From NCBI GenBank assembly GCA_029378245.1, contig JARKIF010000027.1:124001-188000 (forward strand): a stretch of 64,000 nt of DNA, read 5' to 3'. Below the pieces are notes generated by a model, which was not told the DNA's origin, did no database searches, and worked only from the letters and a program-made list of their open reading frames with translations. Shown one piece after another: positions 9,238 through 50,539 of the stretch (positions within the stretch are counted from its first letter, which is position 1; every line of letters begins with the position of its first letter). This DNA comes from Roridomyces roridus. Taxonomy: Eukaryota > Basidiomycota > Agaricomycetes > Agaricales > Mycenaceae. The position numbers and the translations under genes are program-made.

Positions 9238-12200
9238 TTAAGCAACGGCGGCGGTTGTGGCTGGGGTTGGGAAGGATCCAGTGGCATCCATGCTGGCCAG
9301 CTGGCTTGAGGCCATGCGTTCGTTTCGATACAACTGTTGCTGCATTTGGTGCAGAAAGTGGACGAGTCGGTTGTAGTGCTCTTTCCGAGCCCTTAGGTCC
9401 ACGGCGACACGGCGCACTTTGTCCATGAACGCGGCGATGAAGTGCACTTTGTCCATGAACGCGGCGTCGCCAATACGGGCACGCTGCGCATTGAATTGCA
9501 CGAGCTGGCTCTCCTGAGTTGCGATGATATTTTTCAGGTTCGTTGCGCGCTCTAGCAGCGTGTTGAAGGTCGCACGGGTGATCTGCCGGGGCTGCGCGCC
9601 CCCGCTGGCACCCGCAAGAGCAAAGGGGTGGGACGGCGAGGGGCGACGCATGACTTCGGGGTTGGCGTCGTTGTTGGGCATGTTGGGAGACATGAAGTTA
9701 TTCGGTACCGTCGCGACACTTTCTTCCTGCGACTCATCCGTTGATCCAAGGGTCCCCCCGTGCATGCCATTCCGATCGCCCGGTCGAATCCCAGCCCGAA
9801 AATTGCCCTGATCCATGGCCGTCTTGAACAGTGCGGGTCGATTATTCTCTATAAATTGAATAATCTCCTCGGGAAGGCCGCGACGGCGGAGTTCTACCGG
9901 GGGTATGGGAAGACAGTTGAAGACCAGCTGCAGGAGATCGCTGATGCCAGCGGGCATCGGAGCCGGTCCGTTCATGCCCAGTCCCCGTTGCGCGGTCGAT
10001 GTATCGTTCCTCGAGCGCTGGTCCATCACTGTCTGGACGTGAACGCCGTCAAACTGCATCGGACGCTCTTGGTATACCTGTACAGGCCCCGATTTTGCAG
10101 GTTGAGTGTCATGGACCCTGCGGTGGAGCGCTGTGTCGGTATTCAATTCTTGGAAGTAGGCATTCAAGGGTGTGTCCATCGATTGGGGACGAGGTGGGAT
10201 GGCTGCATCGGGACCGGGCAATCCGACATCGTGATTCGTTGCAGAGCCCGTTGAAAAACCAGAGGCGCTGGGAGGCACGGGGAGCTCTGGAAAGCGATTG
10301 ACGGGTTCCTCGAAGTATGGAGGGCCAGACGAGAGGCTGAAAGGTTCGTCGCAGATCCTATCATTGACCGGCAGTCGAGCGCCGAAAAACCGCGATGGCA
10401 AACAGAGGAAGCAGATAGATTCCCGGTGGTCCGGAGTGGGGTTACAGTCCCGGTGACTCCACGACTTGCACGAACGACATTTGACCGTGGGACGTGACCC
10501 TGGTTCTAGAAAGGAACAAAATAAGGGGATATATCGCACAACAGCTCGATCGAGCGTACCTTCTTGTCCACAAACACAACGGAAAACCTCTCCGGAATTC
10601 ACCACTTCGTGGCAAACAGAGCACACCTCCTGTATTGTGGGTGCATCGTGTGACACGACAGCACTATCTGCCGTCCGGGTCGCCAGCGTTACTTCCTCCC
10701 GGACGTATCCCGGGCAGCGGTGGATGCTTCCGCCATCGCTGGAAACGAGCCTATGGATGGACGCTCGATGCAGGTCGAGATCTCGAGCAATCTGGGTGGC
10801 AATGCTGACCAAAGATTGTGGGACGTTCATGGTCCGCCAGACGTATTCCCTCCTAGGGGGTACTGGGGTTGCCACATCACGAGGAGCTGCGATAGCCTCT
10901 TCGTTGTGTACGATGGTTTGGTCCAGGGAGGGCATCGGCGGGAGTTGGAAGAGTGCAGGATGGCGAGGAGAAGAGTCGAAAACAGTAGCCGTCCTTTCAA
11001 TATCCTCATCTGGCGGCGAAGTAAGTGAGGCGATTTCCCAGCATTTAAATGACCATACCGTGTAGTACGCGATTGGCCGACCTCAAGACCTACACAGAAA
11101 ACGTCAGCGCTTCGAGCAAGCAGTCATGAGTGTAGACCGACCTTTTGACACAATCCGTTAAATAAGGTCCAGACGCTGCGTGTATCATCCTCTTCGCCAT
11201 GGACCTTATCAGCGTCGGTTGGTGGATTGACACTGAGCAGAAATCGGTCATTGATGTCGAGTAAGACGTCAAAGTTCTGCTGGATTGAGCCAAGGGATAA
11301 CACCATACAGAGGACCATACCTCGGGTCCCAGCGGAAGAGCGATGCCCTGAGTATTCAGATAATTGATTCCCGACTGTAGAGGGAATCAGCATAGGAATG
11401 GAAAGGGGATGGGTTCACTACCGAGAGGCCGGAAATCTGCAAGCAGGTAAAGCACGGAAGACGGAGACCACCGAGAACACGAACCATTTTGAATCCAAGC
11501 TCAATGCTCGTGTCAAGATCATCCTTTAGGGCCGCGGCGAGTGGACCTTCTGCTGTCCTCCGTTGGGCTAGCAAACGATCAGTTATCCAGGGCGACCCGC
11601 GAAACGAGGTCTGTACCATCTTCATATGCGATAAAGTGAGGGATGGACGTCGGCGACGAGATCCCCTCAATTCGCAGCACATTGGGATGCCTGGGGAAAC
11701 ATGAATGTTGTTCTCTCAACAATATCCTTCTCGCTCACAGTAGTCCTTGCGAGAGTAGAACTGTTGCCTCCAAGCGCTTTCCTCGTTTTAGTGACGAATC
11801 GAGAATGTAACAGTATCGCACACCTCACGAGCATTCCTTCCTGCATCAAAAACCTTGACAATAACAGCTCGACCCTTGGTCTTGCCTGCGTGAAGAAGAT
11901 AGCCTGGCCCGCGTCCGATTTCGAAGGCGACGCTAAGATTCTTGTTCCGGATAATCTGTGTCGGCGTCAACGTTGCTTCAAGTTCAAACAGAGTCAAGTT
12001 CCCCCACGAACCTTCAACCCGTCTCGATCCTCCTGTCGCCTCCGTTTTGCCATAGGTTCTCCGAATACATGTAGATCTAAGGATGAGACCAGTAAGCAAC
12101 CAGAATCCTATGCCAGTACGCGGAAAACTCACCTTCGCTGTCCTCCCGCCGTCGCTTCACGCCATGGTAGATATTCACCAAATCCCCCTGGACATTGGTA

Positions 12201-12250
12201 AAAGTGCCTTCGCCGAGAGTGAAGCCGCTGGCGTTGGAGATGAAAGCCAT
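9238..12250 (-). CDS. Pseudokinase/PHD-like finger protein 1 with coiled-coil tail
   Basis: About 12 exons joined by 40-60 nt introns give about 820 residues. Exon 1 (12250-12133) encodes MAFISNASGFTLGEGTFTN and a basic KRRRE patch. The kinase-like part (about residues 60-250) keeps a glycine loop (GRGPGY), the VAIK-type lysine (VIVKVF), a helix-C glutamate and HPNVLRIEG. The HRD and DFG motifs are replaced (NFDVLLDINDRF, SVNP), so it is probably catalytically dead. A conserved linker (PPRREYVWRTMN) leads to a PHD-like finger with CSVCHE, CVC and KCRSCKSWSHRDC. The tail of about 400 residues has a helical block (NTLLERATNLKNIIATQ, AAFMDKVRRVAVDL) with an internal 10-residue duplication. I have a weak impression of a chromatin-remodelling subunit such as Swi1, unproven. 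No frame break was found. Confidence 0.8.
9414..9466 (-). repeat. 30-bp in-frame duplication in the gene 1 tail
   Basis: The 23 bases at 9414-9436 recur exactly at 9444-9466, a 30-bp period. This duplicates AAFMDKV in the coiled-coil segment without disturbing the frame. Confidence 0.85.
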
Positions 12251-12700
12251 TCAGGACTCGGAGGAGCGAGATGAGGGCTGAGTGCCACGAGAACTCTATG
12301 GCCTCGTGCAAGCACACCGCAAAGCTATGTCGGCCCGAATGCGGCGGGGAAATTGGAACGCAAATGACGGTATGGTATCGATTTTGAGCAAACCACTCCG
12401 TCGTGTTAGATGGTGCCTCAAGAGAGTATCAGCACTCGCGCAACGGCAGGGTGTTGTGGGAATGACGACAGGGGTGAGCTATTATTGACCACCATCCAAT
12501 GTTGATGCTCTGAAAGAGGGAATTCGTCGTCCGCAAGCAGAATGCGGAGGCCATATGGCGAGAAGTGGTACGATTTGAGCGCTCAGCTGCTGAGCTGCTG
12601 AGCTGCCGAAAAGAAGGGAATGTTATTGCCAAATGCTGTAAGTAATCCCGCCTCCTCCTCTTGTCGTCAAGTCACTTGGTTTATTCAGGATATTGGACAC
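12251..12700 (-). promoter_or_regulatory. Conserved upstream block of gene 1
   Basis: The 450 bases upstream of the gene 1 ATG resemble those upstream of genes 3, 4, 5 and 6 (about 19227-19690, 22490-22800, 26105-26540, 30146-30610). Shared landmarks are GCAAAGCTATGTCGG, a CAACGGCAGGGTGTTGTGGG-like stretch, GAATTCGTCGTCCGCAA-like sequence and, furthest out, AAGGAAACAG followed by ATTCGAAGG. Co-duplication of this block suggests that the paralogues carry their promoters with them. Gene 2 has lost it. Confidence 0.5.
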
Positions 12701-12949
12701 AGCAAAAGCCCTAAGGAAACAGTATTCGAAGGTTTGTATGTATGTATTAAGAGTAGCGGGGACAGCAACAGAGACACAGGCAGCGGCTAAAGATACAGTC
12801 GAGAGAAAAGGGTGGATGGCGAGATGGGCGGGGCGGCGCGGGGTAGCGAAAACCTGCGGCGAGACCGAGACCGAGTCTCAGGCTGGCCCCAAATGGTTGG
12901 GGGGCACCAGTGGTAGGCTAGGTGGAAGCGACCTGTGCTCCGTTTGTAG

Positions 12950-13090
12950 CACGTCGTGTCCATCTAAACAAGCAGTCCGAGTTAGTGATTCACATGGAAC
13001 GAGGTCAATGCGGACTCACACCTCAAGTTGTGATGTGTTGTGAACCTCCTTCCACACGTTCCGGCTACATCTGAATACGGCGGGTCGTTG
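12950..13090 (-). pseudogene. Relic of a C2H2 zinc-finger tail downstream of gene 2
   Basis: Read on the minus strand, this stretch gives CGRRFTTHHNLR followed by a GTGTGAGT donor and an intron whose bases match the intron inside the first finger of gene 3 (16619-16680). The flanking bases to 12820 also resemble the 3' end of gene 3. Gene 2 now stops before reaching it, so it is a remnant of a former tail. Confidence 0.6.
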
Positions 13091-13212
13091 TCTGCGTAGG
13101 CGCGCAGGTAAAAGCCCGGTAAAGCTGATCGGCCTGTTCTGTTGCTGAGCACAAGAGGAGTTCAATGGGGCAGTCGGTGAGTGGCGTGAATGTTAGCTGG
13201 GAGTATGGGACT

Positions 13213-15108
13213 CTATGTCCGACTCGGAGATGATAATACCATCAATGAGATTGTCTTGAGCGGATGCCCCCTGGGCAGGCCCGAACTCTCCGAACAAATA
13301 GCACATATACGCTCGTTCGAAATGGGCCCACAGTCCATGTGACTCCACGTCTTGCATGAGCGACATTTGACCGTGGGGCGCAACCCTGGTTCTGGAAAGG
13401 AATGGGATCAGCGGAGTACACGCTTGGTAACTTTGCCTACCTTTCTGGCTGCAAATACAGCCGAAAACCTCTCCAGAATTCACCACTTCATGGCAAACGT
13501 AGCACACCTCCTGGACAGTGGGCGCATCGTGTGATACGACTGCACTATCTGCCGTCCGTGTGGCTAGTGTCACTTCCTCCCGAACGTATCCCGGGCAGCG
13601 GTGTATGCTTCCGCCGTCGCTCCGAGCCAACCGGTTGATAGATACGCGGCGCAGGTCGAGATCTCGGGCGAGTCGGGTGGCGATGGTAACTAAGGATTGC
13701 GGAACGTCCATCGTCCGCCAGACGAATTCCCTGCGAGGCGGTACTGAGGGTGCCTCCACGTGATTACTTGGGATGGCTTGATCCCGCGGCGCCACCGGCG
13801 AGGGTTGCAAGATTGCTGGCGAGAGAGAAGAGTCGAAAACAGCAGGTGTCCTTTCAATATCCTCATCTGTCCGGTGAAGTAAGTAAGGCAACTTGCAGCA
13901 TTGAAATGAGCCACACCATACAATACACGATTGGCCCACCTCAAGACCTACACACGAAACGTCAGCGCTTTGATCAAATCGTTATGAACTGCAGTGACCT
14001 TTTGACACAATCCGTTAAACAACGTCCAGACGCTACCCGCATCGTCTTGTTCTTGGTGCGCAGCATTAGCGCCTGTGGGTGGGTTGATACTGACCAGAAA
14101 TCGGTCGTTGACGTCGAGAAAGACGTCAAAGTTCTGTGGTGGATTAAGACAAGGGAGACGAGCAAAGGGAAGGCCATACCTCAGGTCCCCGCGGGAGCGT
14201 GATGCCTTGAGTACTCAGATAATCCATTCCCGACTGTAAGGAATCAGGAATGGCTCCGAGAGAAGAAGGAAGGTTTTCATACAGAGAGGTCGGAAATCTG
14301 GTAACCAGTCAGCCAACAAAAGTGGATATATACGAACAAAGAAGCGAACCATCTTGAATCCAAGCACAATACTCTGGTCAAGATCGTCCCTGAGGGAGTG
14401 GCCCTGCCGCTGTCTTCCGTTGCGCTAACAAACACTTAGTTGCATACCACGACTTATGAAATGAGCCCTACCGTCCTCATACACTATGAAGTGATGCGTC
14501 GAGGTTGGCGACGAGGTCCCTTCGATTCGTAGGACGTTGGGATGCCTATAGAAGGCCCATATTAGGATAATCCCAAGTGTGGGTTTTCGCTCACAGCAAT
14601 CGTTGCGATACGTTCACGGTAGCCTCCAGGTGCTTTCCGACTCGTTTCAGCTGCGACTCAAGAAGGTACCACGGGTACCAGTATCACACCCCACGAGCAT
14701 TCCTGCTGCTTGCGTTGAAAACCTTCACGATAACCGCCCGACTCTTGATCTTGCTTGCATGAAGCAGATAGCCTGGTCCGCGTCCTATCTCGCGGGCGAG
14801 GCTGAGGTGCTTGTTCCGGATTATCTGTTCGGGTTTGGAACGTTGCTTCAAACTGAGTCCAGACTCTTCACGAACCTTCAATCCATCTTGACCCTCTTCT
14901 CGCCTCCGCTTTCGCACAGGCTCTCCCGGTCCAGGTACATCTGGGGCATCTGCAGCGGGGGACTCGGTTCCTGTGCCAGTACTCAAAAATCACCCTCGTG
15001 GTCCTCCCGCCGTCATTTCACGCCTTGGTATATGACCAGGTCGCCGTGGATATTGTTTAATGTGCCTTCGCTGAGAGCGAAGCCGCTGGCGTTCGATATG
15101 AAAGCCAT
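13213..15108 (-). pseudogene. Pseudokinase/PHD-like finger paralogue 2, inactivated
   Basis: The exon order of the family is present: MAFISNASG start, EIGRGPGYLLHA, HPNVLRIEG, the FDVFLD region, PPRREFVWRTMD and the PHD-like finger ending KCRSCKTWSHMDC and ICAIC. Two lesions are clear. At 15013-15015 the codon that is CGA in the other copies (GVK-R-RRE) is TGA, ending the frame after about 34 codons. In the AEGPLA exon, 8 bases present in the paralogues are missing near 14400, shifting the frame. The last exon runs only about 30 codons past the finger and has no added domain. The conserved upstream block is also missing, replaced by unrelated plus-strand sequence. It is most likely a pseudogene. 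Readthrough or short products cannot be excluded. Confidence 0.75.
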
Positions 15109-15190
15109 CCAGATTCCAGAAGGAGCGAGATGAGAACTGAGTGTGGGGTAATAATACATGACTAACACGGATCGCCACTCTTATGTCAGC

Positions 15191-15540
15191 ATGTCACATG
15201 GTCCTTCCTCCTCGTCGTCGGCCTCGATCCACCCGTTCTGTGACTGGAATCCACCTCGAATTAATTCCCTTCCGTTTAACGACACTTATCAAGCTTCTCT
15301 GCGCGAAAATGCGGCCTCAACATGACCTCCCCATTACTGTCGGCTCCCAACGGAGACTCTGTCGGATGAGACTCTTTCTCTCGTCAAGAATGAGCCCTAC
15401 TTTGGTGCATATCGTTCGATGGATTTGGACTACCTGAGGGCTTTGGTACGTCTTTCGTCGCCGCCTGCTCTGACCGCCGCACCCACCGCAGACCAGGAAG
15501 ACAGGAAGGTGCACGTCGATCTCTACGACTAAGAAAAACG
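15191..15540 (+). pseudogene. Short broken gene fragment, function unknown
   Basis: From the ATG at 15191 the frame reads MSHGPSSSSSASIHPFCDWN and continues for 44 codons to a TGA at 15323-15325. The same frame then continues with DETLSLVKNEPYFGAYRS and DLDYLRAL up to a good splice pair, GTACGT at about 15446 and CCGCAG at about 15492. The composition on both sides of the TGA looks coding, so this is probably the front of a gene with a nonsense codon. I do not recognise the family. Downstream it abuts the truncated membrane-protein copy. Confidence 0.4.
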
Positions 15541-15618
15541 GAGGCAATCGCCGCCGCCGCCACCCGCATCGCTGCCATATACCAACGAACTTATTCGCGC
15601 AACTCCTGCATACACCAC

Positions 15619-15999
15619 AGGAGAGGACTCGCGTCCGGCGTCGAGAGCCACCACGTACGATGCCTCCATCACGAGGACACTTACGCCGTCCCTCCACTGC
15701 CGCATCTCAACCCTAACCAGCCTTACCGAGACGACCCTGGCGCGTACTACAACCCGTACCATGGTCCCGTTCCACAGGCATTCAACGAGGGTGCGCAGCA
15801 GGAATGGGGCAACGAGGCTATTCCGATGACACAAATGGCTGTGGCGGGTCGTGCGAGTCCGGGACCACAGGCGGGTCGTATGTCTCCTGGACCACAAGCT
15901 GCCTACGCCGCTGGCCGTGCGTCGCCTGGTCCGCAGGCTGCTTATGGTGGTGCGAGTGGGAGGATGTCGCCGGGCCCACAGGCGGCGTATGGGCTGTAG
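15619..15999 (+). pseudogene. Truncated, frameshifted copy of the membrane-protein tail
   Basis: Sequence from 15619 matches 8116 onward of the intact gene (about 90% by eye), including the MSPGPQ repeats and the terminal AAYGL codons. The signal peptide, Ser-rich part and membrane span are absent. Thirteen bases are missing after position 15668 relative to the original, which shifts the frame. Homology continues past the stop into the conserved inter-unit block, so the duplicated segment was 3' gene end plus spacer plus pseudokinase gene. Confidence 0.85.
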
Positions 16000-16194
16000 T
16001 ACGACTAGGCATTCTCCTCCTCCCTTTCGACTTCTACCGGATCTCACTCCTCTATTCCTCGTTTCCCTCCTCTGTGGCTCGGCTCGAGCCAGCCAAAACG
16101 CACCTACCTATGTACATCTAATACTACATACTCTTGTTCTCGAAACGCTGCTTACTGCTCATATGCATGCATTTTGGAGCAACTACATAGTCCA

Positions 16195-16340
16195 TGGAGT
16201 GGGACGGTGAAGGAGTTAGGACGGTAAAGAATTCGTATGTGGGAGTACATCAGGCGTAGCGCGCCCTACTACAGATAAGGGGAAAGAGACCGATCAACGT
16301 TCCGAGGCTGGGCGAATGGATAGGTAGCGTAGATGGTAGG
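16195..16340. repeat. Conserved inter-unit block, copy 2
   Basis: Near-identical to 8800-8945, including GGAGTTAGGACGGTAAAGAA and GACCGATCAACGTTCCGAGG. It separates the truncated membrane-protein copy from the stop of gene 3, as copy 1 does for gene 1. Confidence 0.8.
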
Positions 16341-16429
16341 TCAGCGAAAAGGGGCTTCAGAACCGCGACATAAGCGGAGTATGGCGCCAAAGTGGTGAGG
16401 CGACATTAACTACAAAGAGAGAGTGTGTG

Positions 16430-19226
16430 CTAGGCTGAAGCGACAAGTTGTACTCCGAGCGTAGCACTGGTAGGCTGCATACCGGCTACTTGTGCGTTGA
16501 GGGGATTTGCTCTACAACGCTTGGAATGGCGTGCTGCAGTGCCTGCAGTTGTGAAACGTTGCCCGCAACCCTGTTGGCAGGGGTATGGACGGATGCCGTC
16601 GTGCGCGTTCTCATGACCTAACAAAGACGACAAGCAGTCTGAGTTAGTGATACAAATGGACGAGTAGATGCCGACTCACGCTTCAAGTTGTGAGGTGACG
16701 TGAATGTGGCGTCGCACCGAGTACATTTGAAGTGGGCGGCGGGTCGTTTCATGTGTATGCGAGCAGCGTCGGTAGCGACCACACGTGGGTCCAAATCTGT
16801 CGTGCCATCCAATGCCCGCCTTGTTGAGATGAAATCCACGCTGCGGGACCTGGGCGGGACCTGCAGGGTTCCAGGGGTAGGGTTATAAACCCCTCGGTGC
16901 AACGCGATGTCGCTTTCCAGCTCTTCGAAACCGGAATTGGTGGGCGTGTACGTTGATTGTAAGTCAGGTGGGTTGTACAGCCAATTGTCGGTGTTGTGGT
17001 CATTCAATCCCCAGCCCATCAATCCCAAGCCCGTTGGATCATCAGGGGTGCTGGGAGGCACGCGGAGCTCTGGGAAATGATTGAAAGGTACAAATTCGTC
17101 TTGTTCAGGGAAGACTTCTTCAGGGAAGAGTGGAGGGCCGTAAGAGAGAAGGCCGTTGGGGTCGTCGTTGATGAAACCGTCAAAGGTGTCGCCGAGAGGG
17201 CGAAAGTCGGGGGTAGCTGCGGACCAAGAGTCAGCGCTTTGAAGACGACAGGATAAACATGGTGGTATACCCATCCAGGCTTGAGCCGAGTTCGCCAATG
17301 GTTCGTCTGGTAAGATTGCGGTGTCGCTCGTTTCGGCAGGATTGTTGGACGACAAAAACATCGGGGCTGCCGATATATCCGAGGGGCTCCAGAAGCAAAA
17401 ACGACAAATGGGTTCGTTCAGAGTGGGCCTACAGTCCTTGTGACTCCACGACTTGCATGAGCGACATTTGAACGTGGGACGTGAGCCTGGTTCTAGAAAG
17501 AACTGAGATCAGGCGGAGTTCCCTCATGGCAACTTTGCCTACCTTCTTGTCCACAAAAACAACGGAAAACCTCTCCCGAATTCACAACTTCGTGGCATAC
17601 CGAGCACACCTCCTGAATGGTGGGTGCATCGTGTGACACAACGGCGCTATCTTCCGGCCGTGTCGCTAGTGTGACTTCCTCTCGAATGTATCCCGAGCAC
17701 CGGTGTATGCTTCCGCTGTCGCTGAAAACGACATGATTGATGGATGCACGGCGCAGTGCGAGATCGCGAGTGATTTGAGCAGCAATGAAGGCCAAGGATT
17801 GTGGGATGTCCATCATCCGCCAGACGTATTCGCGCCGGGGCGGTACTGAGGGAGCTTCCTCACGATCAGCTGGGATGGCTTCTTCATTTTGAACGGGGGC
17901 TTGGTCCGACGAGGGCATCTGCAAGAATTTCGAGGGCGCCTCCGGACGAGGAGAAGAGTCGAAAACAGTAGCCGTCCTTTGGATATCCTCATCTGGCGGC
18001 GAAGTAAGTGAGGTGATTTGCCAGCATTTAAATGAGCCACACCGTGCAGTACGCGATTGGCCGACCTCAAAACCTACAGAAGAAAGGTCAGCGCTTCAAG
18101 CAAGGCGTCATGAGCGCAGAACGACCTTTTGACACAATCCGTTAAACAAGGTCCAGACGCTTCGGGTGTCGCCTTGTTCTTGGTGGGCCGTAGTAGCGTC
18201 TCTCGGTGGATTGAGACTGAGCAGAAATCGGTCATTGATATCCAGGAAGACGTCAAAGCTCTGCTGGATTGAGACAAAGGAAACCGAGGAAAAGGAAAGC
18301 CATACCTCGGGACCCGGCGGTAGTGTGATGTCTTGTGTACGCAGATAATCTATTCCCGACTTTGTAAGAGGAATCAGCATGGCTCCGACAGAAGAAGGAA
18401 AGTTTTCGTACAGAGAGGTCGGAAATCTGGTAACCGGTCAGGCAACCAAAACGGATACGACCGAACACACGAACCATTTTGAATCCAAGCATGATACTCT
18501 TGTCAAGGTCGTCCCTGAGGGCCGTGGCGAGTGGCCCCTCCGCTGTCTGCCGTTGGGCTAACAAAAGCTCAGTTTCATATCGCGACTTGTGAAATGAGTA
18601 TTACCGTTTTCATACGCTATGAAGTGATACATTGACGTCGGCGACGAGGTCCCCTCAATTCGCAGCACATTGGGATGCCTGGCAAAACGTTAATGCTGTT
18701 CTTCCAAGTATCCTTTTCGCCCACAATAGTCCTTGCGAGAGTAAAACTGTGGCATCCAAGTGCTTTCCTCGTTTCAGTGGCGAGTCGAGAAGGTAACAGT
18801 GTCACACACCTCGCGGGCATTCCTTCCTGCGTTGAACACCTTCACAACGACCGCCCGCTCCTTGATTTTGCCTGCGTGAAGGCGATAGCCTAGCCCGCGT
18901 CCTATCTCGAAGGCGAGGCTAAGATTCTTGTTCCGGATAATCTGGTCTGGCGTCAACGCTGCTTCAAACAGAGTCAAGTTGCCCCACGAACCTTCATCCC
19001 GTCTCGATCCTCCTGTCGCCTCCGTTTTGCCATAGGTTCTCCGGATACATGTAGATCTGAGGATGATACCAATGAGCAACAGACTCCTATGCCAGTACGC
19101 AGAAAACTAACCTTCGCTTTCCTCCCGCCGTCGTTTCACGCCGTGGTAAATATTCAGATTCCCCTGGACATTGGTAAAAGTGCCTTCACCCAGGGTGATT
19201 CCACTGGCGTGCGAGATGAAAGGCAT
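16430..19226 (-). CDS. Pseudokinase/PHD-like finger protein 3 with C2H2 zinc-finger tail
   Basis: The front half is that of the family and intact: MPFISHASGITLGEG start, EIGRGLGYRLHAG, VVVKVFNAG, RIEGTSSPTSM, AEGPLATALRDD, FDVFLDINDRFLLSLNPP, PPRREYVWRMMD, and a PHD-like finger (CSVCHE, CFC, KCRSCKSWSHKDC). The tail has a Pro/Asn-rich linker with ELESDIALHRGVY, also seen in gene 1 as ELNTDTALHRRVH. It ends in two zinc fingers, CTRCDATFTSPHNLKRHENAH and CQQGCGQRFTTAGTAARHSKRC. A phase-1 intron splits the first finger exactly where the neighbouring C2H2 genes are split. The protein is about 730 residues. DNA binding is plausible from the fingers. The kinase-like part lacks HRD and DFG. Confidence 0.8.
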
Positions 19227-19765
19227 CCGCGACTCGGAGGTGCAAGATGAGAGCTATAGGCACGAGAACTCTATAGCCTCGGGCAAACAAGGTGTAGTTG
19301 TCGACGACACACTGCAAAGCTATGTCGGGCCGAATGCGGCGGGCGAAATTGGAACGGGACGTTGACGGAAAGCAATGACGGTACGGTGTAGATTCTGAGG
19401 AAATGGATGCCACTCCGTCGTGTTGGATGGTGCCTCAAGAGAGGGTCAGCGCTCGGGCAACGACAGGTGTTGTGGGATATCAATGATGACGGGGGCGAGC
19501 TATTAGTGACCTCCATCCGCGAGAGAACGCGATCTTCTCAAAGAAAGAATTCGTCGTCCGCAACCTGAGTGCGGAGGCCTGGCCACATGTCGAGATGTGG
19601 GGCGAGTTGAGCGAGAAGGCAATGGTATTTGGCCGAATGCGGTGATGTCGCCTCCTCCCTGGTCAAAAACTTGGTTTATCTGCGACATAGTGAGACTGTA
19701 AGGAGATACAATTCGAGGGATATATATGTGACATTGAGGGTAGTAAATTCGTAGGTGAGAGTACA

Positions 19766-22489
19766 TCAGAATCGGCGTGGTGCACCTCTACGCCGGGCTC
19801 TACGATGAGAAAGAGACTGATGAGAGGAAGCCTGGGCGAGAGTGGATAACGAAATGTGGGGAAGGGGCAGCGAGGTCGGCAGTGAAAGCCGCGGCTCAAA
19901 GCCGAGAGAACCGGCAGGAGCAGTAACAAGAACGGTGGGATTGAGACTCCCTTTCGAAAGATTAACCGACATCGTGGTTCTTGTACATGTTCGCGGTAAA
20001 ATGACAGTGCCACCTATGTCTAGAAGGATTTGAAGCATGACGGTGCCCTGCAGAAAATCCGTGAGCGGGTACGCGATACGAAATACAGGGAATAAAGCGC
20101 ACATTCGCCTGGACTACCACTTGTTGCACCGTCCCGTATTGTGTGTTGCCACAGCCATCCCAATAGAAAACACGCTCGAAGTAAGCAGCGGTGATGGGGA
20201 ACGTCATAGTATTAGGTGTGGAAGGGGATGGCGCATTGTATTCGTCAGGTAAAACGTCTTCGACTTCCTTCTGCGGTCCTCCCGCCTGCCAGTGGAAATC
20301 ATAATCCAAATTGTATTCCATTAGTCGGAATTGCCGGATTTCCCACAACCCACAAGTACCGCACTGCGCTTCGTCCCCCAACGGACCCTTGCGCCGGCGT
20401 ACAGCGATGCTCTCGGGACTGCCGCAGTTGGAACAATGCCATACACCATCGATCACGTTGGCATGTTGACCCTCTGCAAACTCCTTCTCCTTGGCTTCAC
20501 GCTGCAGTGGTCGCGCGCGTTTGGCCGACACGGGCGACGAGAAAAATGTTTTGGCTGCGGAGCCAACTTCATCGGCCGATCCGGCCAGGAAGTTGACATC
20601 CTGTTTGTGAACGGGTAGATGTTCCGATCGCAGGGGTACACCCGAGGCGCTGGAGAAACAGAAGGAGCAAATGGACTCGTTCGGAATGGGGCCACAGTCC
20701 CTATGACTCCATAACTTGCACGAGCGACATTTGAGTGTGGGGTGGGACCCTGGTTCTGGCAAGCAACAATCTAAGGGGATATATCACACAGCAGCTCGAT
20801 CGTACATACCTTCGTGTCCACAGACACAACGGAAAACATCTCCCAAATTCACCACTTCGCGGCAGACGGAGCACACCTCTTGGATGGTGGGCGCATCGTG
20901 TGATACGACAGCGCTGTCCGCCGTCCTGGTTGCCAGCGTTACTTCCTCCCGGACGTATCCCGGGCAGCGGTGTACGGTTCCGATGTCGCTCCAAACCAGC
21001 CGATTGATAGATGCGCGGCGCAGGTCGAGATCTCGGGTGATTTGGGCGGCAATGTTAGCCAACGATTGCGGCATGTCCATCTTCCGCCAGACGTATTCCC
21101 GTCGCGGCGGCACTATGGGTGCCTCCTGGGGATCACTTGAGAGAGGTCCGTCATGTTGCGCGATGGCTTGGTTCGACGAAAGCACCGGAGAGGATTGCCA
21201 GAGCGCCGGAGGGCGAGGAGAAGACTCGAAAGCAGTCGGTGTCCTTTCAATATCCTCATCTGGCGGTGAGTAAGTGAGGTGATTTGACAGCATTGGAATG
21301 AGCCAGACCGTGTAATACGCGATTGGCCGACCTCAAGACCTACACAAGAATGGTCAGTGCTTCAATCAAGGCGTCAAGAGCTGGAGTGACCTTTTGACAC
21401 AATCCGTTGAACAAAGTCCAGATGCTGCGTGTATCCTCCTCTTCTTGATGTGCCGGATTGGCATCGGCTGGTGGATTGATGCTGAGCAGGAATCGGTCGT
21501 TGATATCAAGGAAGACGTCGAAGCTCTGTGTCGGATTGAGACGAAGAAAGATGAGCAGAACGGTGGCAATACCTCGGGTCTTAGTGGAAGAGTCGTGCCT
21601 TGCGTACTCAGATAATCGATCCCCGACTTTGAAAGAGGAATGAGCATGACTATGGGATGAATAGGTTTCTTACAGAAAGGCCAGAAATCTGGGAATGAAT
21701 GAGGTAACGAAAGGGGATACGACCAACACGCACCATTTTGAATCCAAGCACAATGCTGGCTTCAAGATCGTCCCTGAGGGCGAAGGCGAGTGGGCCTTCC
21801 GCTGTCTTTCGATGGGCTTGCAAAACAGTGAGTTCTATTGTGCTTCAAGGACCTGTGAAGTCGGTACCGTCTTCATACGCTATGAAGTGATGAATGGACG
21901 TCGGCGCCGAAGCCCCTTCAACCCGTAGCAGATTGGGGTGCCTGAAAGACCGCCCATAAATGTGAATCCAAGTCCATGTTTTCTTGCTTACAGTAGTCGT
22001 CGCGAGAGGGTCATCGTGGCCTCCCAGTCCTTTCCGATTGATTTCAGAGTCAATTTGAGACGGCAACCTGGGCGTCACACACCTCACGAGCATTTCTTCC
22101 AGCGAAAACCTTCACGATGACCGCTTGACCCTTGATCTTCCCTGAATGAAGAAGATAGCCTTGCCCGCGTCCTATTTCGAGTGTGAGCTTGAGATGTTTG
22201 TTTCGGATAATCTGCGTCGATTTGGAGCATTGCTCTGAAACCCGAGTCCACAACCTCCACGCACCTTCAACCCATCTCGATCCTCCTTTCGCCTCCGTTT
22301 TGGGACAGGCTCTCCCGACCCCGATTAAGCGACCAAGCTCTTGTGTCGATACGCAGAAAACTCACCTTCAATATCTTCCCGTCGTCGTCGTTTCACGCCC
22401 TGGTAATCGTATATGACAAAGTCCCCGTGGATATTATTGAATGTGCCTTCGCCCAGAGTGAAGCCGCTCGCGTTGGAGATGAATGCCAT
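19766..22489 (-). CDS. Pseudokinase/PHD-like finger protein 4 with GATA-type finger tail
   Basis: Exon 1 begins MAFISNASGFTLGEGTFNN. The kinase-like exons are intact (EIGRGQGYLLHSG, AVIVKVF, HPNLLRVEG, AEGPLAFALRDD, FDVFLDINDRFLLSINPP), as are the linker PPRREYVWRKMD and the PHD-like finger (CSVCRE, CVC, KCRSCKLWSHRDC). The tail contains GVWHCSNCGSPESIAVRRRK then CGTCG, a C-x2-C-x20-C-x2-C finger at about 20346-20448. The context resembles the GATA-like end of Agaricomycete Snf5 as I remember it, but the residues after the last Cys pair (LWEIRQFRLMEYN) have decayed from that pattern. An intron at about 20034-20086 joins a last exon ending at 19766. The extreme C-terminus is the least certain part. 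Confidence 0.75.
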
Positions 22490-23264
22490 TAGGAGGGGCA
22501 GGATGAGACAAGCATGAGAGTTGAGTGCAAACAGGCTGTATCTGTCGACCCGGACCCACACCACAGCATCGTATGTCGGGGCCAATCTGGGCCACCGGGT
22601 CTGTTGATGGTCTCACGGCGTATATTCATTGTCCGCAACCTGACTGTCTGTGGGGATGAATCGAGAAAGAAGCTTGAAGCACCACGAAGTAGGATTAAAG
22701 CAGGAATTTAAGCAGCAGTAACTTCAAGAAAGGCAAGAGCCGTGTTTCCAAATCGAGTAATCCCGCCAAAAACCTCGTTTATTCGCCATATGTGAAACAA
22801 AAACCCCAAGGAAACAGAATTCGAGGGTACATACGTCGCGGTGAAGGGAAGTTAGGACGGTAACTAACTCGAAGTATGTAGGCGAGAGTACATCAGAGTC
22901 AAGCGCACCTCTACGCCGGCTCTACGTAGAAAGAGACAATAAAGGCCCCGGATGAGTGTGGGTAGTAGCGACTTGCGCTCAGTGCGCAATACTAGGGCGT
23001 ACGCACGGCAAAGATATCGTGGTATTCCCATGATTGGCATGAACTAACACGACAGGGACAGCTGAATCGCCCGCATGCTGTTCGGCCAATTACATGAGCA
23101 AGCCGCGCCTCCTTTTGATATTTTCCGAGATGGACTGGGCTGTCTATTCGTCAAATAGACCGACCTACAACGCGTGTTAATCACAACTCGATGATTCATT
23201 TGAAACTTACGCGTGCGCGTTCTGCAGGAGGCTTGGCGGCTGATCCTATTCTATTCGTTTCGCT
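22490..23264. other. Spacer between genes 4 and 5
   Basis: The first 300 bases are the diverged upstream block of gene 4. From about 22795 comes the AAGGAAACAGAATTCGAGGG landmark, and then a conserved inter-unit block to about 22960. The remaining 300 bases to the stop of gene 5 show no gene. Confidence 0.6.
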
Positions 23265-26104
23265 TCACAGGCGGATTTTTTTGAGCGGCCTTTCGTCCAT
23301 CGGCCTGGGTGCAGACGGCTGATGATGCGGGAGCCCGCCGGGTAGGAACATCTTGAATTCGTCCAAGAGATCCGGCGCGTCTCTAAACAGATGCTGGACC
23401 CGGACGTACGATGGCGATGCCGGTATCGGTATCTGGTCCTTCTGATACGCCTGCAGAATATCCAAAAACTGCTTGTACGTAGAGAGATCATCCGTGTAGC
23501 GCGCCTTGATCCTGTTCAAGTACTGAATGGCGTGGTTAAACTCGACGCCCGGAGCCGGGTGATTTTCCGGCGCGTGGTTGCTGCTGTTGTTCAGGTTCCC
23601 GAGGAAGGACGTGGCAGCGTTGGTTTGCATTTGGGGGTAATTCGGATTTTCACCACCAAAGGGCGGAGGCTCAAATGTAGCCTGAGATGATACTTGTGGC
23701 GGGTGTGGAACGTGGTACAGCAGGGTGGGTGAATGCGAGCCTGGGCCGTTGCCTATCGGAGGGAGAACAGCAAATGGCATGGGATGCACGATATTAGACC
23801 CAAATCCAGGGATGTCGGGCGCGATGCGGGAGTGCTGGTCATGGCTATAATCCGTGTTCGGGATGGACGTGCCGGTGGGGGTCGCGACGGTGATCGTGTG
23901 ACCAGACTGGGAGACGTTGATGTGAGGTAAAAACGTGTCGAATCCTCGGATGAGACTAGGGTTGCCGCGAAAGAGCTGGGAGACGCGATGTATGGTGCCG
24001 GGGGTGTCAATTCTGTACTGCCTGTGAGTAGACACGTGAAAGGAGAGCGCAACTTGATTTTTGAAATCCTTCATCATGTCCAATAAGTGGTTGTAGACCT
24101 CTGGGCGATCCCAGAACTGGGCCTTGACCGCGTCGAGGTAGCTGAGCGCATCAATGACATTGAGTGGGTGATTAGACTCTGGAGCACCATCAGCCCGATC
24201 CGGCATGTCGTGTGTATTGTCCTGGAATATGTCGGCGGCAAAGGAGAAATCGTTTGTTTCTGTAGCAGCCTCGCCATCCTGTTCATGAACGAACAAGTCT
24301 TCCGCGCGGAAGGGTATATCCGAGGTGTTGAAGAAACAAAAATAGCAAATGGACTCGTTCGCAAAGGGGGCACAGTCCCGGTGACTCCACGACTTGCATG
24401 AGCGACATTTGACCGTGGGGCGCAACCCTGGTTCTGGGAGGCAACGGGATAAGAAGGATATAATGCGCGGCAGTCAAATTGTGCGTACCGTTTTGCCCGC
24501 AAACACAACGGAAAACCTCTCCGGAAGTCACTACTTCGTGGCATACCGAGCAGACCTCCTGGACAGTGGGCGCATCGTGAGATACGACAGCGCTATCTGC
24601 CGTGCGTGTCGCCAATGTTACTTCTTCACGAATGTATCCGGGGCAGCGGTGGATGCTCCTGCCGTCGCTGCGAACCAAACGATTGATAGCTGCGCGGCGC
24701 AGGTCGAGGTCTCGGGCGATTTGGGTGGCAATGCTAGCCAAGGATTGCGGGGCGTCCATCGTCCGCCAGACGTATTCCCTCCGAGGCCGTACTGAAGGAA
24801 CCTCATCGCGGTCAGCTGGGGTAGCTTCCGCTTCAATTTGGATGATGGCTTGGTCCAACGCAGGCGCCAGCGATAGTTGTGAGAGCGCAGGCGAGCGAAC
24901 AGCAGCATCGAAAACGGCGGGCGTCCTTTCAATGTCCTCATCTGGGGTGAAGTAAGTGAAGTGATTTGGCAGCATTGGAATGAGCCTTACCGTGTAATAT
25001 GCGATTGGCCGATCTCAAGACCTAAACACAAAATGTCAGCACTTCGAGCAAGCCGTCATGAGGTAGACTGGCCTTTTGACACAATGCATTGAACAAGGTC
25101 CAGACGCCGCGTGTATCCTCTTGTTCTTGACGAGTTGCATTAGCGCCGATCGGCGGATTGATGCTAAACAGAAATCGGTCTTCGATGTCCAGGAAGACGT
25201 CAAAGCTCTGCTGGATTGAGACAAAGGAGGGGGGAAACAAAAGAGGGCCATACCTCAGGCCCCAGCGGTAGGGAAATGCCTTGCGTATTGAGATAATCGA
25301 TTCCGGACTTTTGCAGCAGAATGAGCATGGGCTTCGCACATTGAGGTAAATAGCTTTACCGAGAGGCTGGAAATCTGAATCCAGTGAGGCAAAGAAGACG
25401 GATAAGGCAGCAGACACGAACCAATTTGAATCCTAGCACGATGCTCTTGTCGAGATCATCCCTCAGAGCCGCAGCGAGTGGGCCTTCCGCCGTGTTCCGA
25501 TGGGCTGGGCATACATTCAGCGGTATACCGCGACCAGTAAATTGGGAACGGTACCATCTTCATAGACGATAAAGTGGTGTATGGACGTCGGCGCCGAGGT
25601 GCCTTTGATTCGCAACACATTGGGATGCCTGTGGAAGGTGCATGGGAGTTCCAAGAGTGCATGGTTGCCGCTTACAATAATCCTCGCGAGACCAATGCCG
25701 TGGCCTCCAAGTGCTGTCCAGATCGTTTCAGCGTCGGGTCCGCCAACGGGAATGGTGCCACGCACCTCACGAGCATTCTTTCCTGCATTAAACACCTTCA
25801 CAATCACGGCCCGATCCTTGATCTTGCCTGCGTGAAGAAGATAGCCTGGGCCACGTCCTATCTCGAGTGTGAGCCTGAGATTTTTGTCTCGAATAATCTT
25901 CAATCCATCTTGATTCTCTCGAGGCAGGGTATCTCGACAAAACGCATGATTGAGCTTTATCTAACGGCGCTCGGCAGAAGAAGAATCACCTTGGTTGCCC
26001 TCCCGCCGTCGTTTCGTGCCATGGTAGATGTTGAGGTTGCCGTGAATGTTGTTGAAGGTGCCTTCGCCGAGACTGAAACCGCTGGCGTTGGAGATGAATG
26101 CCAT
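23265..26104 (-). CDS. Pseudokinase/PHD-like finger protein 5 with Sin3-type PAH1-PAH2 tail
   Basis: The front half is intact: MAFISNASGFSLGEGTFNN, EIGRGPGYLLHAG, VIVKVFNAG, HPNVLRIKG, AEGPLAAALRDD, FDVFLDIEDRFLFSINPP, RPRREYVWRTMD, CSVCHE, CVC, KCRSCKSWSHRDC. The intron between DGLK and IIRDK found in other copies is absent here. After FVHEQDG the tail has two paired amphipathic helix domains. The first (about 24170-23930) has SYLDAVKAQF, YNHLLDMMKDFKNQ and, after a short intron, VSQLFRGNPSLIRGFDTFLP. The second (about 23550-23345) has QYLNRIKARYTDDLSTYKQF, DILQAYQ and FRDAPDLLDEFKMFLPGG. Together with the HTITVATPTGTS linker this matches the N-terminal part of the corepressor Sin3. In Sin3 these domains bind transcription-factor peptides. 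The gene ends KKIRL, about 780 residues in all. Confidence 0.85.
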
Positions 26105-26540
26105 CTAGCAGGACCGAGAGCTGGATGGCACGGGAGCTCTAGCCAAACTGTAGTTGTCGATGGTGCGCACCGCAACAAAGCTATGTCGGAACGAATGTGA
26201 GGTCCGCTGTCATTGTCGCGTCTCTGCGAATACGGCGTTGGAACTGGACGCGGGACGCGAGGGGTGCCGATTCTGAAGGAGTGCCACTCCGACGCGTGAT
26301 ACAAGGATAGGCGCTCGCGCAACGACAGACTGTTGTGGGAATGGGAACGGGGGCGAGCCATTGACCACCGGTCGGAAGAGCACCCTCCCGCTCATTCTCT
26401 CCCTCAAGCCCGAGGCAGGGTTCAATTGAGTTCGACGAGCAAGAAGCGAGTTCATTGCCCAATTGAGTAATCCCGCTTTCTCCTTGCTCTCTTTGCAATC
26501 TTCTGCTCAAAAGCTTCGTTTATTCAACATATGTATGCGA
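26105..26540 (-). promoter_or_regulatory. Conserved upstream block of gene 5
   Basis: It shares GCAACAAAGCTATGTCGGA, GCGCAACGACAG followed by GTTGTGGGAATG, and the terminal GTTTATTCAACATATGTATGC segment with the upstream blocks of the other paralogues. No regulatory factor site was recognised within it. Confidence 0.4.
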
Positions 26541-26714
26541 CAGAAGGAAACTCTAAGCAAACAAAATTCGAAATGTAGCAGTGAGGGAGGCAAACTCGTA
26601 GGTACATCAGATCGGCGTGGTGCGCAGACTCTACGCCGGGCTCTATGAGCGAGTAGCGAAATGGGCGAGGCAGCGTCGGCAGTAAAAGGTTACGCCTCAA
26701 AGCCGAGGCCTAAC

Positions 26715-26830
26715 CAACGAGCGCAGTATGGCGCCGAAGTGGTGGGGGCGAGAGTGCTAGGAAGCGACTTGTGCTCCGTGTGCAGTTGTTGGCGGCAGGG
26801 GTGTGGACGGATGCGCCGAGACGAGCGGTA
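26715..26830 (-). pseudogene. Relic of a C2H2 tail downstream of gene 6
   Basis: AGTATGGCGCCGAAGTGGTG (26729 on) matches the region just after the gene 3 stop (16378 on). GGCAGGGGTGTGGACGGATG (about 26796 on) matches the second-finger coding sequence of gene 3 (16572 on). The stretch between is deleted. Gene 6 stops before it, so the old tail survives only as debris. Confidence 0.6.
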
Positions 26831-26839
26831 CGGCGTGGG

Positions 26840-29800
26840 CTAAGGGTGCGTGGGCGACGGGGCGCGGGGCAGACTTCCGTAGTCGCTGTCCAATGACGAG
26901 CCGAAGCCAGAAGTCTGCACGGATAGTTGGTATCGTGAATTGGGGGACATAGTGCTCTTCGCATTCTTGGTGAGCCGCCTCCATTGTAAAGATGAAGTAG
27001 GCATTGGTTTCTGCTCCGGGCGGTCAGGACCTTTATAAGTCACTGGCCAGTTGACAGGTACAGGATGCCCGGCAGTTCGAAAAACTGGTGCGACCACACG
27101 CGGATCAGGGGGTATGACGGGAACGGGTGGTGGGGGGTAACGCAGGGGCGCGGGTATGGCGAGGGGACGACCGGTATAGGGAGAAGTGGGTCTGAACCGG
27201 GAGGCAGGGGAGAGTTGCCGCCGAGCGCGCGTAGTAGAAGATGGCGAGTGGTGCGAATCCAACGGTGTCGACGGATGCGGCTCTCCGTCGCCATTGACCA
27301 TGACCCAAGATTCGGCAGGGCTGTCTTCGGCATCGCTGTGATGCTGAGACGGACGGTTTCGGCGCGAGGTGTCCACTTTCGCCCCGGGGCCCGCATGGGA
27401 ATAATGATTTCGCCACTGCTCCGACTGCTCACCAGGAGACTTCTCAGGTGGAACATCCGGGACATGGATTTGGGTCCCAGGCGGAGTCAAATTGTTGTCC
27501 TCAAACGTTGCGCGGTTGGGCGATAGTGGCGGCGGTGGGGGTGGTGGAGGTACCAGGTTGCCGTTCCGGTCATACAACGGGCGTGGAGGCGGCGGTGGGC
27601 GGCTGGGCGGGGAAGGGTCTCGCTCGTAATCAGCCTCATAACCCACTGAAGCATCGGAAACGAGGTTCTTGCTCGTAGACGAAGCGCTGTCATTGCGAGA
27701 GCGAGATCGTTTGGGTTGGAGTGGGGGAAATGTATTGGAGGGGATGAATGGTGGTAAAATGGTGGATCCGTTAATGGGAGAGAGGGAGGTAACAGGGTGA
27801 AGCGGCGGGGAAGGCTCGTGGACACGGGCGGACGAGATGGAGACGAGGAGTTTGAGAGTGCCCCTGTCGTCTCCAAGCTCACAACAAAGCTTAAAGAGTT
27901 TTTCGTCGGTCAGGGCCTCGCCAATGGCAAAACTGCCAATCTCGGTGCGATAAATGGCGAACTGCCGCTGATCCTCGTCGTCGAATATATTGAACTATGC
28001 AAGTTGAGAGCGGCTCGAAACAAAGAAAAACGGAGGCAGACCTTGACAAAGACACTCTCGCGAATCCAGGCTGGGTTGCTAGCGTTGCTGATATCGACAT
28101 TGACATATCGCTCCGAGTCGGCGGTGACAAGGATAAGGACACGGTCGGGAACGGAATGGGGCGAGCTAAATTCGGGTGTGGCAGGACGTCTCGGAAACGT
28201 AGGATCGAGTGATGACAGAATGGTTTGGGTTGCGGAAGCAGCCTCGCCATCCTGTTCATGAACGAAGAGGTCTTCCGCACCCGAAGTTACATCCGAGGAG
28301 CTTGAGGAACAAAAATAACAAATGGATTCGTTCCGAGTGGGTCCACAGTCCCTGTGACTCCATGTCTTGCACGAACGACATTTAACCGTGGGGCGGGACC
28401 CTGGCTCTGAAAGACAATGAGATAAGGGGATATGGGATATATATCCCACAGCAGTTGGACTATACCTACCTTCTTGTCCGCAAACACAACGGAAAACCTC
28501 TCCCGAATTCACGACTTCGTGGCAAACGGAGCAAACCTCCTGGATAGTGGGTGCATCGTGTGATACCACAGCGCTGTCCGCCGTCCTGGTCGCCAGCGTT
28601 ACTTCTTCACGAACGTATCCCAGGCAGCGGTGGATGCTTCCGCCGTCGCTCCGAGCCAGACGATTGATGGACCCCCGGCGTAGGTCGAGATCTCGAGCGA
28701 TTCGGGTGGCAATGGTAGCCAAAGATTGCGCTACGTCCATCGTCCGCCAGACGAATTCCCGCCGAGGCGGTACTGAGGGTGCCTTCTTGTGTTCACTTGG
28801 GATAGCTTCTTCAGTCGGGAGGATAGGTTGGTCCAACGAAGGACCCGGAGAGGGTCGCGACATCTCTGGTAAGCGACGAGAAGAGTCGAAAGCAGTCGGC
28901 GTCCTTTCAATATCCTCATCTGGCGGTGAGTAAGTGAGGTGCTTTGCCAGCATTGGAATGAGCCATACCGTGTAGTACGCGATTGGCCGACCTCAAGACC
29001 TACACAGGAAACGTCAGCACTTCGGGCAAGCGGTCATGAGTGTAGACTGACCTTTTGACACAATCCGTTAAATAAGGTCCAGACACTGCGCGTATCATTC
29101 TCTTCAGAATGGGCCGGATTAGCGTCGGTTGGTGGATTGATACTAAACAGGAATCGGTCGTTGATATCCAGGAAGACGTCGAAGTTCTGCTGGATTAAGA
29201 CAAAGGAATACGACCGTAAGATGACAGTACCTTGGGTCCCAGCGGAAAGGGGATGCCTTGAGTATTCAGATAATGTATTCCCGACTGTAGAGGGAATTAG
29301 CATGGGAAAAAGGAAAGGGATGGGCTCCCTACAGAGAGGCTGGAAATCTGTGAGCCGGTAAGTTACAGAATACGGAGACCACCGAGAGCACGGACCATTT
29401 TGAATCCAAGCTCAATGCTCGCGTCAAGATCATCCCTCAGGGCAGCGGCGAGTGGACCTTCTGCTGTCCTCCGTTGGGCTGGCAAACGATCAGTTCTACA
29501 GCACGACCCGCGAAGCGAGGTCTGTACCATCTTCATATGCGATAAAGTGATATAGGGACGTCGGCGACGAGATCCCCTCGATTCGCAACACATTGGGATG
29601 CCTGGAAAAACATGAATGTTGTTCTCTGAGCCGTATCCTTCTCGCTCACAATAGCCCTTGCGAGAGTAAAACTGTGGCATCCAAGTGCTTTCCTCGTTTT
29701 AGTGGCGAATCAAGAAGGCAGCAGTAGTACACACCTCACGAGCATTCCTTCCTGCGTCAAAAACCTTCACAACAACCGCCCGACCCTTGATCTTGCCCGC

Positions 29801-30145
29801 GTGAAGAAGATAGCCTGGCCCGCGTCCTATCTCGAAGGCGAGGCTAAGATTCTTGTTCCGGATTATCTGTTTAGCTTTAGAAACGTTGCTTCAAACCGAG
29901 TCCAGACTCTGCACGAACCTTCAGTCTATCTTGATCCTCCTTTCGCCTCCGGTTCCCCATACGTTCTCCGCAGTGATCTGAGGGACAGGAAGAGTGAGGG
30001 ATTGGATGTACCAGTACTCGGACAACTTACCCTCGTTGTCCTCCCGTCGTCGTTTCCCGCTCTGGTATATGACTAGATCGCCGTGAACGTTGTTGAATGT
30101 CCCTTCGCCGAGAGTGAAGCCGCTGGCGTTCGAAATGAAGGCCAT
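26840..30145 (-). CDS. Pseudokinase/PHD-like finger protein 6 with Bck1-type MAPKKK regulatory tail
   Basis: The front half is intact: MAFISNASGFTLGEGTFNN, EIGRGPGYLLHAG, VVVKVFDAG, HPNVLRIEG, AEGPLAAALRDD, NFDVFLDINDRFLFSINPP, PPRREFVWRTMD, CSVCHE, CVC, KCRSCKTWSHRDC. After FVHEQDG the tail reads VPDRVLILVTADSERYVNVD, NPAWIRESVFVK, a 48-nt intron, then IFDDEDQRQFAIYRTEIGSF, GEALTDEKLF and DDRGTLKLLVS. This is the ubiquitin-fold-like region near the N-terminus of the cell-wall-integrity MAPKKK Bck1/Mkh1. It is followed by that protein's Pro-rich stretch (SRSRNDSASSTSKNL, RNGNLVPPPPPPPPLSPNRA, GTQIHVPDVPPE, WVMVNGDG). The Bck1 kinase domain is absent. The predicted product is about 900 residues. 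The tail is a partial regulator copy, not a functional MAPKKK. Confidence 0.85.
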
Positions 30146-42345: not shown

Positions 42346-42477
42346 ATATGCGATTCCTTCGGGGTCATTCCAAGATGATGATGATCCAACCTCTGCTGAA
42401 CATGGACCCATAGTCTTGAGAAAAGGAACCAAAGTTGGATCTGTTGACCGACCAACAGCAAATAAATAAATAGTAAT

Positions 42478-42720: not shown

Positions 42721-42725
42721 GGGAA

Positions 42726-45542: not shown

Positions 45543-46275
<733 letters not shown>

Positions 46276-49570: not shown

Positions 49571-49734
49571 CATGTTGATTACATACGGGGTTTCAAATGC
49601 TGTTGTTGAACTTGATGTTAGTGGGTTTCGTGTGTGTATCTTGGGATGCGGACATCCAGGCCAGAATCACTAGTAACTGAGAGCAGAAAGAAGCGCGGTA
49701 CCGAGAACCAGAGAAATTTCAAATCGGGGATGGA

Positions 49735-50510: not shown

Positions 50511-50539
50511 TACCAGCGAGAACTACGCGGTCATAGTCA

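What the first reader, a model, noticed from the sequence alone, without database searches (positions are those of the whole stretch)
9238..30145. Tandem pseudokinase/PHD genes with interchangeable regulator tails
Six head-to-tail paralogues share a front half (degenerate kinase fold, linker, PHD-like finger), but each intact copy carries a different tail: coiled-coil domain, C2H2 pair, GATA-type finger, Sin3 PAH1-PAH2, Bck1 regulatory region. The switch always falls shortly after the PHD-like finger, and genes 5 and 6 share FVHEQDG at the joint. Tails copied from chromatin and cell-wall-integrity regulators, without their catalytic parts, resemble integrated decoys on plant immune receptors. 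The platform could sense attack on those hubs, or compete with them. I know of no description of this arrangement in fungi, though I cannot search.
Basis: partly seen in the sequence, partly recalled or inferred. Interest (0 to 1): 0.95.

Follow-up and report, generated by a model that had tools for sequence, protein, structure and literature searches.

The report
Mushroom dead-kinase platform harvesting regulator tails
In the mushroom Roridomyces roridus, a cluster of predicted genes joins one conserved, predicted-inactive kinase-like and PHD front half to fast-changing fragments related to the fungus's own regulators (Sin3, Bck1, an ARID protein and others), and these tails likely serve as baits or blockers for whatever attacks or uses those regulators.

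The parts
9238..12250 (-). U1: pseudokinase-PHD front plus a tail of two blocks flanking the ARID domain of an ARID protein, in swapped order (tail homology about 9213-9702 and 9755-10081)
   Evidence: model; parent C1:2004344-2005615, 78-82% protein; ARID E 6.8e-13 in the parent; DNA blocks
13150..15108 (-). U2: broken copy (stop in exon 1, 8-nt loss in exon 6)
16430..19226 (-). U3: front plus a tail ending in a C2H2 pair
   Evidence: model; C2H2 E 1.1e-7; best non-allelic relatives 70% over 40 and 58% over 52 residues, in a C2H2 array present in this window and on C1
19962..22489 (-). U4: front plus weakly GATA-like zinc-finger tail (homology 20255-20327 and 20350-20535)
   Evidence: model; parent C112:2778004, 81% over 62 aa, 92% DNA over 187 columns
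23265..26104 (-). U5: front plus Sin3 PAH1-PAH2 tail (Sin3-homologous DNA 23165-24168); equals FB45DRAFT_1008768 but for one residue
26840..30145 (-). U6: front plus tail from the regulatory region of a Bck1-type MAPKKK (homologous DNA 26814-28184), no kinase domain
5553..6300 (+). seventh, divergent copy of the front family
   Evidence: exon 9 and 11 hits at C190:129553-130209, finger-like ORF
33524..51603 (-). neighbouring tandem C2H2 gene array, possible source of the U3 tail
   Evidence: self-matches; finger matches at window 33524, 36428, 39536, 42759, 46786, 50546; ORFs

Best explanation
A tandem, haplotype-divergent cluster of predicted genes in Roridomyces roridus joins a conserved, predicted-inactive kinase-like and PHD front half to fragments related to the fungus's own regulators, and the tails would act as baits or competitors that couple interference with those regulators to a response run by the front. 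Shown here: fused gene models, the same front-tail pairs on the second haplotype (with a 2-nt frameshift in the U4 front there, and a frame break at an intron-like stretch of the U5 tail there), relatives of the tails in the same genome, capture of the Sin3 tail within the Roridomyces lineage, fast tail change with the frame kept, and the same design with other tails in other Mycenaceae. Inferred: nuclear location (basic clusters before the kinase-like domain), copying as DNA rather than by RNA (good for Bck1, fair for Sin3), the bait or blocker role, and any output of the pseudokinase or the finger. How it would work: a copied surface of a hub such as the Sin3 PAH pair is held on the front; a factor that targets the hub, from a virus, mobile element, bacterium or rival nucleus, would also bind the tail; the front would then change state or place on chromatin. 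New tails arise behind the finger and tandem duplication keeps many of them.
For: Open models front into tail; public model for U5. Same pairs on C1 for U1, U3-U6. Relatives outside the family for 9 of 9 tails sought, 5 in the window and 4 from other copies; those of the C2H2, cyclin-like, dsRNA-binding and homeodomain tails match only 28-107 residues or are large families, so they name a kind of source, not one parent. Sin3_corepress lies downstream at all four Sin3 matches C84, C102, C118, C442; the Bck1-type parent carries a kinase domain. The U6 tail keeps a parental 48-nt intron; Sin3 and Bck1 homology runs 100 and 26 nt past the tail stops. Both U5 tail alleles and two R. roridus Sin3 proteins form a clade, SH-aLRT 100. 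Relative rate: 42 tail-only versus 4 Sin3-only changes (P0121, outgroup P0122); 22 versus 5 against P0160; all eight printed comparisons go the same way. Pooled omega 0.24 front, 0.79 tail, Fisher 6e-11. Tail indels 14 of 17 in threes versus 12 of 42 in introns and intergenic DNA, p 3e-4. Haplotype identity 89.7-97.4% in cluster genes, 98.9-99.97% at four control loci. Beta-3 Lys kept in 112 of 120, DFG Asp in 7 of 120. Basic run before the kinase-like domain in 82 of 99 parsed, 21 expected in shuffles. Family tails include dsRNA-binding, C2H2, PAH, SCA7, homeodomain, bZIP, GATA, Myb and RRM.
Against: No transcript, protein, interaction or phenotype data; no attacker known. The U4 tail is slow (omega 0.12, 7 changes), and U1's 2.09 rests on changes clustered near its end. 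Bootstrap intervals of four tails include 1, so relaxed constraint fits as well as diversifying selection. PAH cores change almost as fast (13 of 79, 7 of 65) as the rest of the U5 tail (35 of 191) between haplotypes. Front indels are few and not in threes (2 of 5; one is the intron difference, one the U4 frameshift). Divergence is not confined to the family: the gene left of U1 is 87.7% identical and the flank right of U6 97.2%. 27 of 120 members gave no parsable finger and were dropped from tail counts. No NLR gene in the cluster among the 150 scored NPHP3_N matches of 399 candidates.
Confidence: 0.4

Rival explanations
1. Competitor or adaptor proteins: the front is a chromatin-bound scaffold and the tails recruit or titrate partners of Sin3, ARID complexes, GATA-like targets or the Bck1 pathway, as dominant-negative or rewired regulators of the fungus's own genes, without any attacker.
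For: Tails lack the Bck1 kinase, the Sin3 corepressor domain and the ARID core. PHD finger in the front, basic clusters.
Against: The tail changes about ten times faster than Sin3; haplotype divergence and tail turnover are not expected for stable regulators.
Confidence: 0.25
2. Allorecognition: the cluster is a set of incompatibility genes whose front-tail differences between nuclei are read after hyphal fusion.
For: Haplotypes differ several-fold more than at four control loci and in copy content (an insertion of about 9 kb with an extra copy).
Against: Both haplotypes appear in one assembly. No het, NLR or death domain among the Pfam families listed for 120 members. Divergence fits immune loci as well.
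Confidence: 0.15
3. Mostly accidental chimeras: exchange and end-joining in an unstable tandem array append host fragments; fronts matter and tails are tolerated.
For: Pooled tail omega 0.79 with intervals that include 1 in four of five, U2 broken, 41 singleton groups of 50.
Against: Tail frames are kept (14 of 17 indels in threes versus 12 of 42 noncoding). Recognisable tails are mostly regulator or nucleic-acid-binding domains, though I did not test that bias against the make-up of the genome.
Confidence: 0.18

Closest known systems
Plant NLR receptors with integrated domains (NLR-IDs, e.g. RRS1-R, WRKY19)
   Same: Host regulator domains copied onto a conserved platform; independent integrations. 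WRKY19 carries PAH, WRKY and MAPK parts in a table of PMC9528084 (passages seen), close in kind to the PAH and MAPKKK tails here.
   Different: No NB-ARC or LRR here; the platform is a pseudokinase-PHD protein; no effector or helper known.
Putative integrated decoys on Sordariales NLRs (PMC12258605, passages seen)
   Same: Fungal; a kinase domain related to a host CHK2 protein joined to a receptor.
   Different: There NACHT receptors, kinase domain in 12 NLRs; here a non-NLR family with 50 tail groups among 86 tails.
PHD-finger chromatin readers (SHPRH, BPTF, ASH1L)
   Same: Finger matched by profile.
   Different: Joined to a pseudokinase and to swapped tails; histone binding untested.
MLKL and other pseudokinases
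   Same: Kinase fold without catalytic residues; weak profile matches to MLKL, E 0.01-0.1.
   Different: No four-helix bundle domain seen in Pfam scans; PHD finger and exchangeable tails added.

Membership tests
NLR with integrated domain | NACHT or NB-ARC nucleotide-binding domain | tested here: not met
   No such family among those listed at E 0.01 for 120 homologues; ordered front is kinase fold plus finger
NLR with integrated domain | extra domain copied from a host protein | tested here: met
NLR with integrated domain | integrated domain binds a pathogen effector | not testable with these tools
   needs binding assays
Pseudokinase | protein kinase fold | tested here: met
Pseudokinase | loss of HRD and DFG aspartates | tested here: met
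   at the HRD place S, L, P or M dominate; at the DFG Asp place N in 97, D in 7 of 120 (columns assigned by eye)
PHD finger | PHD profile similarity | tested here: met
   profile against PDB PHD fingers, best E 1.4e-5; Pfam PHD_5 at E 0.01 in 17 of 120, below cut-off in P0001
FunK1 fungal kinases | match to the FunK1 Pfam family (name recalled) | tested here: not met
   absent from the families listed for 120 members
MLKL-like cell-death protein | four-helix bundle or HeLo domain | tested here: inconclusive
   none in Pfam scans; the fold was not searched for
Agaricomycete NLR amyloid-like N-terminal motif (PMC9815663) | very N-terminal motif with a core of about 25 residues, three hydrophobics then G[DN] | tested here: inconclusive
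   the family N-terminus fits the wording by eye; the logo was not seen; an own-genome motif search gave 67 matches, mostly at cluster genes and none on a contig stretch next to the 150 listed NPHP3_N matches

The most novel reading that the evidence does not exclude
Mycenaceae carry a non-NLR surveillance system: a nuclear pseudokinase-PHD platform that keeps harvesting pieces of the fungus's own chromatin and signalling hubs as integrated baits, giving a diversifying repertoire within one cluster.
Probability: 0.3. Interest if true: 0.95.

Novelty: new variant of a known kind. Interest (0 to 1): 0.83.

Why it matters
Integrated decoys are known on plant NLRs and proposed on some fungal NLRs. 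A fungal family without any NLR domain that has taken up fragments of Sin3, a Bck1-type kinase, an ARID protein, homeobox, bZIP and other factors would show that the design can arise on other platforms. The tails would then also name the regulators that are fought over inside mushroom cells. Even without a decoy role it is an unusually clear natural system for watching domain capture, because parents, copies and two alleles of each are in one genome.

Tried and rejected
Separate front and tail genes: rejected as the default because frames, exon joints and a public model run through; no RNA was at hand. Retroposed tails: rejected for U6 (parental intron kept), unlikely for U5 (an intron-like stretch that is out of frame in the parent is kept); U4 lacks the stretch where the parent has an intron (by eye), so its route is open. 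Simple coiled-coil tail in U1: replaced by the ARID-protein origin. NLR membership: failed. NLR-type amyloid motif: not shown. LysM-like reading of residues 290-360: an idea by eye, not tested. Residues 288-432 were not folded or searched alone; the fold lists are filled by kinases. Nine searches of the open PMC library found no description of this family; subscription papers and preprints are not held. Papers were seen as listings, and as passages for PMC10197012, PMC12258605, PMC12881547, PMC9528084, PMC9815663 and PMC4986451.

Full report
What is there. The window is part of contig C190 of a 90.8-Mb assembly. Protein U5 equals hypothetical protein FB45DRAFT_1008768 of Roridomyces roridus except for one residue at an acceptor site. 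Six minus-strand copies lie between 9.2 and 30.1 kb. I modelled exons from the alignment of the six copies. Five copies are open from the start through the front into a tail of about 230-470 residues; U2 is broken. A search with one front exon found 75 matches. By my count they mark 27 places on C190:9-258 kb plus two weak ones further on, and 31 on C1:300-652 kb, with the rest on C10, C24 and C480; such counts are lower bounds. C1 looks like the second haplotype: C1:399-433 kb is collinear with the window, with an insertion of about 9 kb that holds one more copy.

The tails and their relatives. U5: two PAH repeats; same-genome relatives at C84/C102 (76%) and C118/C442 (71%), with a Sin3_corepress domain downstream of each. 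U6: 89-91% DNA identity to C491 and C316; the C491 gene goes on to a kinase with GRGTYG loop, HRDLKSDN and SDFG read by eye, so it is a MAPKKK-type kinase; the name Bck1 rests on recalled features, and the Ras-binding-like similarity of the tail is weak (E 0.071). U1: two blocks from either side of an ARID domain (E 6.8e-13 in the parent), in swapped order. U4: 81% over 62 residues to a weakly GATA-like factor. U3: two C2H2 fingers; best non-allelic relatives (70% over 40, 58% over 52 residues) belong to a C2H2 array 14-35 kb away in the window and on C1. Four further tails of the cluster also found relatives: an unnamed gene (67% over 96 and 76% over 72 residues), and cyclin-like (up to 60%), dsRNA-binding (66% over 38) and homeodomain (62-79% over 28-42) sequences.

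How they arose. The U6 tail keeps a 48-nt parental intron. The U5 tail keeps a stretch that is out of frame in the parent; on this haplotype it is read as coding. Homologous DNA runs past both tail stops. So DNA was copied, surely for U6 and probably for U5. Synonymous distance to the parent is 0.17-0.20 for Bck1 and 0.39-0.41 for Sin3, against 0.10-0.12 between tail alleles (my aligner masked frame shifts at gap edges). The same parent segments barely differ between their own alleles (dS 0.005 for Bck1; 0 of 334 codons for Sin3). In a tree of 37 rows both U5 tail alleles group with the two R. roridus Sin3 proteins (SH-aLRT 100), apart from Sin3 of other Mycena; four other PAH-like chimera tails sit on very long branches and cannot be placed. 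Relative-rate tests give 42 tail-only and 4 Sin3-only changes (P0121, outgroup P0122, p 2e-8) and 22 and 5 against P0160 (p 0.001); two of five outgroups were printed.

Selection. Between haplotypes, omega is 0.16, 0.25, 0.26, 0.19, 0.25 for fronts and 2.09, 0.76, 0.12, 0.78, 0.77 for tails of U1, U3, U4, U5, U6. Pooled: 0.24 versus 0.79 (Fisher 6e-11; gene conversion not modelled). Four of five tails are faster than their fronts, U4 is not. Bootstrap intervals of U1, U3, U5 and U6 include 1 (U4 0-0.61), so positive selection is not proven. Frames are kept: 14 of 17 tail indels are multiples of three, against 12 of 42 in introns and intergenic DNA (p 3e-4); fronts have 2 of 5, including the intron difference and the U4 frameshift. 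The three tail exceptions are 1 nt in the intron-like stretch of U5, 196 nt near the start of the U3 tail (an intron in my C1 model) and 2 nt near the U3 stop. So tails look translated, free to change and not decaying. PAH cores are not clearly slower than the rest of the tail. Cluster genes are 89.7-97.4% identical between haplotypes, against 98.9-99.97% at four control loci (five pairs, two from the same place); the gene left of U1 is also divergent (87.7%), so the whole stretch is variable.

Beyond this genome. The front found 142 proteins at E 0.001; the 120 listed are all from Mycena, Roridomyces and Favolaschia. A second search found 122; the 120 listed are from the same genera plus one unnamed metagenome protein. 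About 8000 candidates were scored each time, so the range is a lower bound. In several species many members sit on contigs of one length (9 of 10 in M. vulgaris), which suggests clusters. Of 120 proteins, 93 had a parsable finger; 86 had tails of 40 residues or more, in 50 single-linkage groups, 41 of them singletons. Pfam at E 0.01 over 120 members: dsRNA-binding 10, C2H2 7, PAH 4, SCA7 3, homeodomain 2, and one each of GATA, bZIP, Myb, RRM and DUF6699; most tails have no Pfam name. On the front tree (92 rows; 33 of 89 inner branches open) fronts group largely by species; 49 tail states on 85 rows need 60 changes (48 is the least possible), and nine shared states on 45 rows need 20 (least 8).

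Meaning. A fixed platform, hub fragments without catalytic parts, kept frames, fast tails, divergent haplotypes and repeated tail turnover are what an integrated-bait system would look like. It works like NLR integrated domains but is no NLR. A blocker or adaptor role explains the missing parts as well and the speed less well. Accidental chimeras explain the speed and not the kept frames. I give the bait or competitor reading 0.4 and the strong surveillance reading 0.3. No experiment bears on function.

Noticed in passing
window 33524-51603: A tandem array of C2H2 zinc-finger genes next to the cluster, 64-77% DNA identity between matched stretches, present on C1 too.
   Followed up: partly
window 7429-8568 and 15394-15999: Two related Ser/Pro-rich ORFs, the first with a likely signal peptide and one transmembrane stretch (by eye), lie between cluster members.
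   Followed up: no
window 25766-25932: U5 here lacks, precisely, an intron between exons 2 and 3 that its allele on C1 keeps: an intron loss.
   Followed up: partly
window 24018-24053: An intron-like stretch of Sin3 in the U5 tail differs in length between alleles and is read as coding on this haplotype.
   Followed up: partly
G000 C84:5243-16777 and C102:7590-9432: Several further PAH fragments lie near the Sin3 gene, as if Sin3 pieces were duplicated there too.
   Followed up: no
finger exons of U3 and U5: Synonymous divergence between alleles in the finger is 0.47 in U3 and 0 in U5, which suggests gene conversion among copies.
   Followed up: no
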